Source: Microbacterium ginsengiterrae
GTDB lineage: Bacteria; Actinomycetota; Actinomycetes; Actinomycetales; Microbacteriaceae
DNA length: 64,000 nt
Assembly: GCF_014205075.1 (NCBI RefSeq)
Contig: NZ_JACHMU010000001.1
Span: forward strand, 2,914,001 to 2,978,000
Direction: 5' to 3'
Shown piece after piece: positions 56,304 through 59,263 of the stretch; the stretch's first letter is position 1; each line of letters begins with the position of its first letter. The position numbers were made by a program, and so were the translations under genes. The notes under the pieces were generated by a model. That model was not told the DNA's origin. It ran no database searches and saw only the letters and a program-made list of their open reading frames with translations.

Positions 56304-57391
56304 GATGAGTGTCCTCGCTTGGGCATCCGGTCTTTCGGGCCAGGTCGCATTCCGGCGCGGCGATCGGCACGGTTGGCGAACTCGTGCGCCTGGTCGCGCT
56401 CATGCCGCGCGGCGATGCGCTGCTCGTCGTACTCGCTGTACGCGTCGACGATGCGGCCGACGAGGGAGTGCCGGACCACATCCTCGCTCGTGAGCCGCGC
56501 GAAGTGGATGTCGTCGACGTCCTTCAGGACCTGCGTCACGAGCCGGAGGCCGGAGGCCCCCTGCGGGAGGTCGACCTGGGTGATGTCGCCGGTGACGACC
56601 ATCTTCGTTCCGAAGCCCAGACGGGTGAGGAACATCTTCATCTGCTCCGGCGTGGTGTTCTGCGCCTCGTCGAGCACGACGAACGAGTCGTTGAGCGTGC
56701 GCCCACGCATGTAGGCGAGCGGCGCGACCTCGATCGTGCCGGTGGCCATCAGCCGTGGAACGATCTCGGGGTCCATCATCTCGTTCAGCGCGTCGTAGAG
56801 CGGCCGCAGATACGGATCGATCTTGTCGGTCAGCGTGCCGGGCAGGAAGCCGAGCCGCTCCCCCGCTTCGACGGCGGGACGGGTGAGGATGATGCGCTCG
56901 ACCTCTTTGCGCTGCAACGCCTGGACGGCCTTCGCCATCGCGAGATACGTCTTGCCGGTACCGGCAGGCCCGATTCCGAAGACGATCGTGCTCTCGTCGA
57001 TCGCGTCGACGTACTCCTTCTGCCCCGGTGTCTTGGGGCGGATGACACGACCGCGCGTGGACAGGATCGCTTCGCCGAGGACCTCGCTCGGCCGCGGGCC
57101 GCCCTCGCGGCGCAGCATCCGTGCGGAGGTCGCCACGTCGGACGGCGCGAGATCGGCGCCCTCGCGTGTGATGGTGATCAGCTCGTCCACGAGGCTCTTG
57201 GCCGCCGCGACGGCCTCGGACGCACCCGTGAGGGTGATCTCGTTGCCCCGGACGAGGACGTCGACAGCAGGATGCTCCTTCTCGAGCATCCGCAGCAGAC
57301 GATCCTGCGGGCCGAGCAGCTGCACCATGGCGACGCCGTCCGCGTAGACGCGCTCTGTCACAGACGGGGACTGGGAATCGTCAGAAGCCAA
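56300..57391 (-). CDS. PhoH-family ATPase
   Basis: 363 aa from a TTG at 57391, 10 nt after GGAG; a later GTG is possible, so the start is uncertain. N-terminal KH-like domain (about 20-95) then the PhoH P-loop domain with GPAGTGKTYLAM, DEAQNTTPEQMK and a GDITQVDLP segment. Likely an RNA-related ATPase; its place between HIT and ybeY is standard. It overlaps the HIT end by 11 bp. Confidence 0.92.
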   Translation of the reverse strand: MASDDSQSPSVTERVYADGVAMVQLLGPQDRLLRMLEKEHPAVDVLVRGNEITLTGASEAVAAAKSLVDELITITREGADLAPSDVATSARMLRREGGPRPSEVLGEAILSTRGRVIRPKTPGQKEYVDAIDESTIVFGIGPAGTGKTYLAMAKAVQALQRKEVERIILTRPAVEAGERLGFLPGTLTDKIDPYLRPLYDALNEMMDPEIVPRLMATGTIEVAPLAYMRGRTLNDSFVVLDEAQNTTPEQMKMFLTRLGFGTKMVVTGDITQVDLPQGASGLRLVTQVLKDVDDIHFARLTSEDVVRHSLVGRIVDAYSEYDEQRIAARHERDQAHEFANRADRRAGMRPGPKDRMPKRGHSS

Positions 57392-57728
57392 CGAGTTTGT
57401 TCTCCTCGAGGTTGCCGAGCACATGAGCGTGCACGTGGAAGACGGACTGCGCAGCGCTGGGTCCGTTGTTGAAGATGAGACGGTACTCGCCGTTGGCGTG
57501 CTCGTCCGCGATGCGCTTGGCGACCGCGACCATCTCGGCGAGAAGCTGAGGGTCTCCGGCGGCGAGCTCGGTCACATCGCGGAACTGCTCCGTCTTGGGG
57601 ATGACGAGCATGTGCAGCGGTGCCTGCGGGTTGATGTCGCGGATCGCGAAGACGGTCTCGGTCTCGAGCACGATCTCTCCGGGGATGTCGCCCGAGAGGA
57701 TGCGCGTGAAGATCGACGGTTCGGTCAT
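57381..57728 (-). CDS. HIT-domain (histidine triad) nucleotide hydrolase
   Basis: 115 aa. The triad HVHAHV carries H98, H100 and H102; FAIRDINPQAPLHMLVIPK is also conserved. Hint-type proteins remove groups from nucleoside phosphoramidates. This is the most upstream member of the HIT-phoH-ybeY chain; normally rsmE adjoins it, but here the GIY-YIG element intervenes. Confidence 0.93.
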   Translation of the reverse strand: MTEPSIFTRILSGDIPGEIVLETETVFAIRDINPQAPLHMLVIPKTEQFRDVTELAAGDPQLLAEMVAVAKRIADEHANGEYRLIFNNGPSAAQSVFHVHAHVLGNLEENKLVGF

Positions 57729-57831: not shown

Positions 57832-57963
57832 GGGTCGTTGAGCGAGCGCAGCGAGACGAAACGGGCTGAGCGAGCGCAGCGAGACGAAGCCGTCGCCTCC
57901 CCCGGGTCGTTGAGCAAGCGCAGCGAGACGAAACGGGCTGAGCGAGCGTCAGCGAGCCGAAGC
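57832..57963. repeat. left repeat cluster (copies A and B) of the GIY-YIG element
   Basis: Two tandem copies of a ~60-bp unit (57832-57890 and 57904-57963), each starting GGGTCGTTGAGC and holding two direct copies of an inner GAGCGAGCGCAGCGAGACG-like word. Copy B differs mainly by one extra T, which makes the GIY-YIG stop codon. Short degraded pieces extend back to ~57779. Confidence 0.88.
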
Positions 57964-58257
57964 CGCTCTCCCCTTCGCGGCCCGCTGGCGCTTCTGCCAT
58001 CCGATCACGGCGTCGAGCCCGCCCTCGGCGAATGCGACCCGCTTGGCGTGGCTCCATCCCTGCAGCCGCTTCTCCCACGCGAAAGCCTCGTCGATGGCGT
58101 CGAACTCCCCACACCAGAACAGCTCCACGGGAAGACGTCGCTTGGTGTACTCGGCGCCCATGCCTGCCTGATGCTGGCGGAGCCGCTGATCGAGGTCGAT
58201 CGTGCTGCCGACGTAGAGTGTGCCGTCACAGCATCGGAGCATGTATGCGTGTGCCAT
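57949..58257 (-). CDS. GIY-YIG domain endonuclease-like protein
   Basis: 102 aa, a minimal single-domain GIY-YIG nuclease of the UvrC N-terminal/YhbQ type. Seen are AYMLRC (Y5), LYVGSTIDLDQRL (Y15, R25), and the metal-binding glutamate in AWEKRLQGW (E62). The C-terminus RAASAR and its stop lie inside repeat copy B. The ATG follows TACGGT by 6 nt (leaderless type). It interrupts the conserved rsmE-HIT junction and is bracketed by inverted repeats. Confidence 0.9.
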   Translation of the reverse strand: MAHAYMLRCCDGTLYVGSTIDLDQRLRQHQAGMGAEYTKRRLPVELFWCGEFDAIDEAFAWEKRLQGWSHAKRVAFAEGGLDAVIGWQKRQRAAKGRAASAR

Positions 58258-58263
58258 GGATGC

Positions 58264-58269
58264 ACCGTA
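58264..58269 (-). promoter_or_regulatory. -10 box for GIY-YIG gene
   Basis: TACGGT on the minus strand, 6 nt before the ATG at 58257, in the 42-bp gap between repeat C and the gene. The -35 is not recognisable. Confidence 0.45.
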
Positions 58270-58299
58270 GACGGAGCGGCGGACATCGGCCGGGGGGAG

Positions 58300-58507
58300 G
58301 CTTCGACTCGTCGCTGCGCTCCTCGCTCAGCCCGTTTCGTCTCGCTCCGCTCGCTCAACGACCCGCAGGAAGAACGCCGCTCAGGCTTCGACTCGTCGCT
58401 GCGCTCCTCGCTCAGCCCGTTTCGTCTCGCTCCGCTCGCTCAACGACCCGCAGGAAGAACGCTCACTCAACGACCCATCCGAGGGAAGAACGCCCGCTCA
58501 ACGAGCC
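58300..58507. repeat. right repeat cluster (copies C and D and remnants)
   Basis: Two identical 65-bp copies (58300-58364 and 58385-58449) in inverted orientation relative to A and B, each followed by the same 12-bp GCAGGAAGAACG. After D come shorter pieces of the same end (CTCAACGACCC-like near 58462 and 58494), each followed by GAAGAACG-like text. The cluster lies between the GIY-YIG start and rsmE; no gene is present. Confidence 0.9.
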
Positions 58508-58525: not shown

Positions 58526-59263
58526 CTACCAGCGGCCGAGCGCCACCGAGAGCACGGAGATCGCGGCGGGGCCGGCGGTGGAGGTCCGAAGGACCGTGTC
58601 GCCGAGGCGCACCCGCTCCGCTCCTGCCGCCTCGAACTTCTCCAGCTCCTCCGGGGAGATGCCGCCCTCGGGGCCCACGACGAGCATGACGTCGTGATCG
58701 GCCTCAGCATCCACCGCCACATCCGAGAGCTTGGCCGTCGCGGTCGGGTCGAGCACCAGCATCCGCGCTCCGCCCGCCCTGGCGATCACCTGGGCGGTCG
58801 ACGAGGCCTCTGAGACCGAGGGCACCCACGGACGATGAGCCTGCTTGGCCGCCTCGCGGACGATCGTCGCCCAGCGCTCCCGGCCCTTGGTCGCCTTGGC
58901 GCCCTCCCAACGCGACACACTGCGGGAAGCCTGCCATGGCACGATCTCGTCCACGCCGAGTTCGCAGGAGGTCTGCACGGCGAGCTCGTCCCTGTCACCC
59001 TTCGCGAGGGCCTGGACGAGCACGAGCCGCACCTTCGGCGCCGCTGCTGCGGACTGCGCGGTGATCGTCACATCCACGCGCGACGCGGACACATCCGCGA
59101 CCGTGCCCTCGAGCCACACCCCACTGCCGTCGCCGACAGTGACGGACTCGCCGACACGCACCCGTCGGACCACCGCTGCGTGCTTGGCCTCCGCACCCGA
59201 GAGGGAGACGGTGTCGCCGACCGCCGCTCCCGAGCAGGCCTCGACGAGGAAGTGCAGCGCCAT
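58526..59263 (-). CDS. rsmE: 16S rRNA m3U1498 methyltransferase
   Basis: 245 aa SPOUT-fold enzyme. The N-terminal PUA-like region holds HAAVVRRVRVGE; the knotted C-terminal half has VGPEGGISPEELE and LGDTVLRTSTAGPAAISVL. It starts with an ATG overlapping the dnaJ stop by one base (TGATG). The hrcA-dnaJ-rsmE order is standard. Confidence 0.95.
   Translation of the reverse strand: MALHFLVEACSGAAVGDTVSLSGAEAKHAAVVRRVRVGESVTVGDGSGVWLEGTVADVSASRVDVTITAQSAAAAPKVRLVLVQALAKGDRDELAVQTSCELGVDEIVPWQASRSVSRWEGAKATKGRERWATIVREAAKQAHRPWVPSVSEASSTAQVIARAGGARMLVLDPTATAKLSDVAVDAEADHDVMLVVGPEGGISPEELEKFEAAGAERVRLGDTVLRTSTAGPAAISVLSVALGRW

What the first reader, a model, noticed from the sequence alone, without database searches (positions are those of the whole stretch)
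57832..58507. GIY-YIG nuclease gene bracketed by ~60-bp inverted repeats: a candidate mobile or repeat-spreading unit
Copies A and B (plus orientation) lie on one side of a 102-aa GIY-YIG gene, and copies C and D of the same element lie inverted on the other. In Actinobacteria hrcA-dnaJ-rsmE and HIT-phoH-ybeY usually adjoin; here the whole unit sits at that joint. GIY-YIG proteins are known as DNA nucleases in homing and transposition. A pairing of such a nuclease with its own repeat would resemble REP/RAYT systems with a different enzyme. The link between enzyme and repeat is inference.
Basis: partly seen in the sequence, partly recalled or inferred. Interest (0 to 1): 0.78.

Follow-up and report, generated by a model that had tools for sequence, protein, structure and literature searches.

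The report
Nuclease gene with matching DNA hairpins
A small nuclease gene is bracketed by short DNA repeats that look like a special kind of DNA hairpin, and relatives of this gene in several bacterial phyla sit beside their own version of the same hairpin, which suggests a so far unnamed enzyme-and-repeat partnership that may explain why such repeats are scattered through many genomes.

Summary
In detail: a 102-aa GIY-YIG gene (57949-58257, minus) lies between inverted ~56-62-bp repeats, each made of two adjacent hairpins. In 119 genomes of the genus, three GIY-YIG clades each go with their own repeat, adjacent to the gene and scattered genome-wide (AUC 0.93, 0.96, 0.99; mismatched combinations 0.34-0.64). 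All three repeats reduce to one design: variable complementary arms around a GA...GA internal loop, topped by a variable inner part. In 80 loci from Proteobacteria and Chloroflexota fetched by protein, an unbiased scan ranked this loop first (61 of 80 loci, 19-fold denser beside the gene; next best 12 of 80). At the rsmE-HIT joint the unit is present in 3 of 30 loci examined (inverted in one); 25 have a 17-121-bp gap, 2 are undetermined. Best reading: a structure-selective nuclease paired with its own hairpins, working like REP/RAYT but unrelated to it. Binding, cutting and spreading are not shown; 13 repeat-rich genomes lack any detectable relative of the gene, and 19 of 27 deep Actinomycetota loci lack the hairpin. 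I found no description in print, in an incomplete library.

The parts
57949..58257 (-). GIY-YIG nuclease gene, 102 aa; Y5, Y15, G17, R25, H29, E62 conserved
   Evidence: ORF; PF01541 56.2 bits; invariant columns of a 54-row alignment; dN/dS 0.10 and 0.13 against the copies of G078 and G099
57836..57863 (+). hairpin A1: CGTT-GAGCGAGCGCAGCGAGACGA-AACG
   Evidence: pattern
57864..57891 (+). hairpin A2: GGCT..AGCC, directly abutting A1
57908..57935 (+). hairpin B1: CGTT..AACG
57936..57964 (+). hairpin B2: GGCT..AGCC; overlaps the 3' end of the nuclease gene
58299..58332 (-). hairpin C2: GGCT..AGCC with a longer inner part
58333..58360 (-). hairpin C1: CGTT..AACG
58384..58417 (-). hairpin D2: GGCT..AGCC with a longer inner part
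   Evidence: C and D lie in an 80-nt perfect direct repeat
58418..58445 (-). hairpin D1: CGTT..AACG
58448..58507 (-). two truncated repeat ends (CTCAACGACCC / CTCAACGAGCC) outside D
   Evidence: direct repeat family D4, sequence
57381..57728 (-). HIT-family gene, left neighbour of the insertion (name recognised from sequence, not run against a library)
   Evidence: ORF; used as tblastn marker
58526..59263 (-). rsmE gene, right neighbour of the insertion (name recognised from sequence, not run against a library)
   Evidence: ORF; found in 116 of 119 genus genomes

Best explanation
The nuclease and the repeats are one system. The repeat is a single-strand DNA hairpin: complementary arms of free sequence, a tandem GA/GA step (sheared G-A pairs in a Py-GA-Pu setting), a short or long inner part, often capped by a GNA triloop. 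The small, SLX1-like GIY-YIG protein recognises the hairpin by shape plus the GA/GA step when it extrudes (cruciform or lagging strand) and cuts at or beside it. Cutting leads to copying or relocation of hairpins through host repair, so the gene and its bracketing hairpins move as a unit, solo hairpins accumulate, and tandem arrays form. Shown: the pairing, the shared anatomy, its conservation by covariation, sites that are filled in some relatives and empty in others, purifying selection on the gene. Inferred: binding, cutting, DNA rather than RNA as target, and spreading. How repair inserts a hairpin at a new place is the weakest step, because GIY-YIG enzymes hydrolyse DNA without a covalent link to it (general knowledge).
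Against: Of 20 genomes rich in a repeat whose clade they lack, 13 had no GIY-YIG relative at E <= 0.01. In deep Actinomycetota 8 of 27 GIY loci carry the hairpin with arms of 5. Of six oligos folded as DNA only the ATTCT form gave the proposed structure (z -3.66); the two window copies gave other, weak structures (z 0.41 and -1.76), a typed longer type-1 form also folded otherwise (z -1.81), type 2 only its arms (z -2.02), and type 3 folded strongly (z -4.61) but with TCGA paired to TCGA instead of the GA/GA step. In the genus set another loop key (TGA..GAG, 26 of 64 loci) has a higher near/far ratio, 11.0 against 7.1. Repeat 2 is also somewhat commoner with clade 1 (AUC 0.643, p = 0.008). Genome-count p values ignore relatedness. 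No insertion footprint or target duplication could be read. Synonymous distances are near saturation (dS 0.7-1.4). No biochemistry was available.
Confidence: 0.57

Rival explanations
1. Homing into repeats: the hairpins spread by another route, and the GIY-YIG gene is a homing gene whose cutting site is the repeat, so it keeps landing inside repeat clusters.
For: The gene is bracketed by repeats and present as a unit in the rsmE-HIT gap of only 3 of 30 loci; repeat-rich genomes without the gene exist; homing is a classical GIY-YIG role (PMC1564403, passages).
Against: Most genomes without the close clade have no copy of the repeat (52 of 86), which homing into a pre-existing repeat does not predict; no extra DNA-binding domain was found, only PF01541.
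Confidence: 0.15
2. Domesticated resolvase: the protein keeps the genome safe by opening or resolving cruciforms that the repeats form; it does not spread them.
For: Nearest folds are SLX1 and At-HIGLE, enzymes of branched DNA (PMC6902002 and PMC9071465, start of abstracts in the search listing); the gene is under purifying selection; stable cruciforms are a plausible hazard (inference).
Against: The gene is patchy and at least one copy is broken by three stops (L035), while repeat-rich genomes without it exist; a guard need not be bracketed by the repeats.
Confidence: 0.13
3. RNA-level system: the hairpins act in transcripts (terminator, processing or stability site) and the protein is an RNA-acting regulator of its own and other messages.
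For: In many sphingomonad loci one hairpin begins about 43-46 nt before the matched start of the gene; solo clusters appear to lie between genes.
Against: GNA triloops (25 of 40) point to DNA: GCGAAGC is called an extraordinarily stable DNA hairpin (PMC6582339, passages); no Rfam family matches the unit; copies beside the gene occur in both orientations.
Confidence: 0.08
4. Passenger: both gene and repeats merely collect in permissive intergenic sites and have no functional tie.
For: Both lie in or near intergenic sites.
Against: Clade-specific pairing, including inside single genomes, and the 19-fold local enrichment in other phyla.
Confidence: 0.03

Closest known systems
REP / REPIN repeats with RAYT (TnpA-REP)
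   Same: Short dispersed hairpins, clustered at the enzyme gene and also elsewhere, different repeat types beside different enzymes of one genome; E. coli REPs have a conserved mismatch in the stem and only one strand is cut (PMC8266576 and PMC3116915, passages).
   Different: Enzyme is GIY-YIG, not an HUH tyrosine transposase; no GTAG before the hairpin; the conserved part is GA..GA inside the stem; GIY-YIG chemistry does not rejoin strands by itself (general knowledge).
Bacterial UPF0213 GIY-YIG proteins (1zg2, 1ywl)
   Same: Closest solved sequences, E 7.7e-21 and 9.4e-16; similar size (107 and 96 residues).
   Different: Listed only as hypothetical proteins; whether their genes have such repeats was not examined here.
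SLX1 / At-HIGLE structure-selective nucleases
   Different: No room for a RING domain in 102 aa; an SLX4-like partner was not looked for.
GIY-YIG homing endonucleases (I-TevI type)
   Different: No separate DNA-binding domain found; not in an intron or intein; many scattered partner repeats.

Membership tests
REP/RAYT | Partner enzyme is an HUH (Y1) tyrosine transposase | tested here: not met
   Pfam scan of the protein gives PF01541 only
REP/RAYT | Tetranucleotide GTAG 5' of the palindrome | tested here: not met
   The eight window hairpins are preceded by GGGT or by the end of the abutting hairpin (AACG), none by GTAG
REP/RAYT | Repeats cluster at the enzyme gene and occur elsewhere in the genome | tested here: met
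REP/RAYT | Each enzyme lineage has its own repeat type | tested here: met
REP/RAYT | Enzyme binds and cuts single-stranded repeat DNA | not testable with these tools
   needs purified protein
GIY-YIG nuclease superfamily | Catalytic domain with conserved Tyr, Arg, Glu | tested here: met
   56.2 bits; Y5, Y15, R25, E62 invariant in 54 rows
GIY-YIG homing endonuclease | Separate DNA-binding region such as NUMOD motifs | tested here: not met
   Only PF01541 found in 102 aa
GIY-YIG homing endonuclease | Gene sits in an intron or intein interrupting its own target | tested here: not met
   Gene lies in an intergenic gap between rsmE and HIT
SLX1 | C-terminal RING-type domain | tested here: not met
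   102-aa protein with the GIY-YIG domain over residues 3-71 and no other Pfam match
MITE / insertion sequence | Target-site duplication at insertions | tested here: inconclusive
   Filled and empty sites aligned at three solo clusters; flanks too diverged to read duplications

The most novel reading that the evidence does not exclude
There is a cross-phylum class of dispersed bacterial repeats, the tandem-GA hairpins, defined by shape (free arms, GA..GA step, often a GNA-capped inner stem), each lineage of which is partnered with, and spread or maintained by, a dedicated small GIY-YIG nuclease. Forms such as nnnTGAGCYTGTCGAAnnn, ATTCTGAGCGNAGCGAAGAAT and GGTCGAGTAG..TATCGAGACC, which look unrelated and were met here in Actinomycetota and in part in Proteobacteria and Chloroflexota, would be one family.
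Probability: 0.5. Interest if true: 0.93.

Novelty: categorically new. Interest (0 to 1): 0.84.

Why it matters
Short dispersed repeats fill many bacterial genomes and, apart from REP/RAYT, few have an assigned enzyme (general knowledge). A second, unrelated enzyme-hairpin pairing, with a code read from covariation, would unify repeat families that look unrelated, give thousands of uncharacterised small GIY-YIG proteins (6173 and 7989 relatives at E <= 0.001 in two searches that each scored only 7998 candidates) a testable substrate, and offer a nuclease that reads DNA shape.

Tried and rejected
Perfect palindrome or CRISPR-like repeat: rejected, arms are short and the loop is asymmetric. A fixed 32-mer as the unit: rejected, arms and inner parts vary. 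Inverted bracketing as a requirement: rejected for this genus (mixed), though usual in the named loci (up+ 85, up- 18, dn- 98, dn+ 41). That call found a hairpin in 80 of 80 loci (64 both sides, 11 downstream only, 5 upstream only), but this is generous: arms of 4, and a downstream window that ran far into long frames in some loci; I rely on 61 of 80 with arms of 5. The 80 loci are the best 80 of 571 by match to A2, whose first row ends in a repeat-derived tail, so loci with that tail are favoured. Folding supports the model for the ATTCT oligo only. Rfam gave nothing up to E = 1, NCBIfam nothing. A phylum-wide test of the ATTCT form is weaker: GIY at E <= 1e-12 in 8 of 16 genomes with a match against 23 of 280 without.

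How groups were set: clade 1 means a best hit of 115 bits or more (33 genomes); clades 2 (15) and 3 (13, broken copies included) were assigned from the protein sequence, but after I had seen the flanks, so not blind; the later tree agrees, with weak support for clade 2 (61). G091, which falls with clade 1 in the tree, was counted outside clade 1 there, and the weak second hit of G089 (L084) was not counted. The three repeat patterns were written from these same loci. One search tested 20 of the 21 genomes that passed my cut-offs (repeat 1 at 10 or more, repeat 2 at 30 or more, repeat 3 at 2 or more, clade absent); G026, with 2 copies of repeat 3, was left out. One search used all 115 matches that one search counted (72 distinct). 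One search used 35 genome-and-sequence rows (27 distinct) taken from the places one search printed, which are cut for genomes with many copies.

Literature: ten searches of open-licence PMC papers. Those aimed at a GIY-YIG-repeat pairing or at the repeat letters listed no title on such a pairing in bacteria; two searches found no paper; one search listed 20 of 41. Searches were for DNA hairpins, SLX1 and REP. Preprints and most subscription journals are not held. Papers: passages of PMC6582339, PMC5430850, PMC8266576, PMC3116915 and PMC1564403, plus section 11 of the last.

Full report
What is there. In the window a 102-aa GIY-YIG gene (57949-58257, minus strand) carries a PF01541 domain at 56.2 bits. 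On each side lie two copies of a ~56-62-bp repeat, the two sides inverted with respect to each other. Each copy is a pair of abutting hairpins, one with arms CGTT/AACG and one with arms GGCT/AGCC. BLAST of the stretch against the genome places no other copy inside the window; 43 looser arm-and-loop matches elsewhere in it (of which I saw the first 20 with a GAGC or GAGT start) do not resemble the repeat. The genome has one standalone GIY-YIG gene; two other matches lie in frames of 592 and 657 codons. It has 27 pattern copies and no reversed-control copy.

Pairing inside the genus. The protein was searched in 119 genomes: 53 have a relative at E <= 1e-6. The pattern was counted in the same genomes. 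All 33 genomes with the close clade have the repeat (26 with 10 or more copies, median 29); of the 86 others 34 have any (9 with 10 or more, median 0), Mann-Whitney p = 1.1e-14, relatedness ignored. Many of the distant GIY-YIG genes turned out to carry other repeats at their flanks: TGAGCYTGTCGAA with short arms, and GAGTAGC..CGTATCGA. Counted in the same genomes, the three repeats go with three protein clades: AUC 0.934, 0.964 and 0.987 on the diagonal, 0.338 to 0.643 off it. Within 500 bp of the gene, clade 2 shows its own repeat as the commonest in 15 of 15 tree rows and clade 1 in 34 of 36; in clade 3, 10 of 12 rows are so labelled, one (L063) is a tie and one (L083) has none. The tree needs 3 label changes where 2 is the least possible, and 0 of 200 shuffles do as well; many of its forks are unresolved. 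Nine genomes hold two GIY-YIG genes of different clades; in eight both genes have their own repeat type as the commonest, and in the ninth (G076) the clade-1 gene has none that the patterns catch within 500 bp (one search puts the nearest copies 390 bp downstream, 4 mismatches, and 738 bp upstream, 1 mismatch).

One design. All three repeats, and a fourth seen in deep Actinomycetota, share the plan arm, GAG, inner part, CGA, complementary arm. This was then tested without assuming it. Eighty named loci were fetched by protein, mostly Sphingomonadales, also gamma- and betaproteobacteria and Chloroflexota. Every maximal hairpin with arms of 5 or more was listed and keyed by the first and last three loop letters. 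GAG..CGA occurred within 300 bp of the gene in 61 of 80 loci, 115 times in 47,285 bp against 50 times in 402,464 bp further off, 19.2-fold; the next key reached 12 of 80. In the 64 Microbacterium loci it is found in 60 with arms of 4 (301 near, 396 far, 7.1-fold); there one other key, TGA..GAG, has a higher ratio (11.0) in 26 loci. In 27 deep Actinomycetota loci it is found in 8 with arms of 5 (12 near, 6 far, 6.1-fold) and in 11 with arms of 4 (18 near, 25 far, 2.5-fold). So much of the protein family outside these groups lacks the partner.

Structure. Arms covary although they were not preselected: for 135 copies of GAGCYTGTCGA the third and fourth arm positions pair in 0.889 of copies each, against 0.447 and 0.326 after shuffling. 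Among 27 distinct variants of the ATTCT form, 17 differ from the reference at two positions, and in 10 of these the two changes restore a base pair, at five different pairs; 2 of the 27 touch the GA/GA letters. The GA steps sit in a Py-GA-Pu setting on the left side in 134 of 156 and on the right in 137 of 156 hairpins whose loop begins and ends with GA (tallied). In 72 distinct type-3 copies, 60 have an inner stem of 3 or more; 40 of those close on a triloop, 25 of the 40 being GNA, against 34 of 453 triloops in shuffled controls. In the type-1 repeat the freely varying letter is the middle of such a GNA triloop in the proposed fold (A 12, C 9, G 5, T 1 in 27 distinct copies). GCGAAGC is described as an extraordinarily stable DNA hairpin (PMC6582339, passages); that tandem sheared G-A pairs in Py-GA-Pu are very stable in DNA is recalled. 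Together this points to a DNA hairpin presented by one strand. Against it, the folding program returns the proposed structure only for the ATTCT oligo (z -3.66). The two window copies fold weakly and otherwise (z 0.41 and -1.76), a typed longer type-1 form otherwise (z -1.81), type 2 by its arms alone (z -2.02), and type 3 strongly but with TCGA paired to TCGA (z -4.61).

Filled and empty sites. rsmE was found in 116 of 119 genus genomes; the 30 best loci were examined. The window's genome and its two nearest by rsmE carry the GIY unit between rsmE and HIT (gap 584-1247 bp), in one of them with the gene inverted. Of the other 27, 25 have a gap of 17-121 bp without the gene and 2 have no HIT gene in the fetched stretch. 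Six solo clusters of the window's genome were compared with four relatives; three were aligned. A ~335-bp cluster corresponds to 2 and 8 bp in G099 and G096 and to a different stretch with other repeat-like sequence in G078. A ~190-bp cluster, 267-281 bp between the matching flanks, corresponds to 17 and 31 bp in G099 and G096, while an unbroken match suggests that G078 has it. A ~315-bp cluster is missing in G096, other sequence stands there in G099, and G078 has a shorter one. The other three gave no clean comparison. The sites appear to lie between genes. Exact ends could not be read.

Exceptions. Twenty genomes rich in one of the repeats but lacking its clade were searched with a wide profile; 13 have no GIY-YIG relative at E <= 0.01, 7 have one of another clade. 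So copies outlast the gene, or something else can spread them.

Reading. The pairing is well supported; the proposed action (shape recognition of an extruded hairpin, cutting, spreading by repair) is inference. It works like REP/RAYT but fails two of its defining features, enzyme class and GTAG, so I do not file it there. I found no account of such a pairing in the searches named under Tried and rejected, in an incomplete library. That the ATTCT and TTCGACAAGCTCA forms are among the commonest dispersed bacterial repeats is recalled, not measured.

Noticed in passing
L043, L045, L049, L050, L052, L054, L058-L063, L065, L066, L068, L083, L085-L087: 19 of 64 Microbacterium GIY loci have GTTTCACGTGAAAC palindromes (recalled as ParB parS sites) within 1.5 kb, so clade-3 and some clade-1 genes may recur near the parAB/origin region.
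   Followed up: partly
L033 upstream of the gene; L028 downstream: Regular tandem arrays of the repeat, about 105 bp apart in L033 and 41 bp apart in L028.
   Followed up: no
C-termini of P0123, P0126, P0132, P0212, P0223: Sphingomonad and other GIY proteins run at the C-terminus into PSTSSGRT-like tails, read as translated repeat (the query favoured such tails).
   Followed up: no
L130, L132, L136, L141, L157: Nested elements in sphingomonad-type loci: an outer [arm]GAG..CGA[arm'] hairpin encloses a second complete one.
   Followed up: no
L206 and L216, rsmE-HIT gap: The same gap holds what look like short solo hairpin remnants in G088 (L206) and G076 (L216), so it may be a recurrent landing place.
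   Followed up: no
L250 (G110:C1:856934-857041): G110, rich in repeat 1 but without clade 1, has besides its clade-2 gene a partial GIY match of 41.5 bits that may be a remnant.
   Followed up: no
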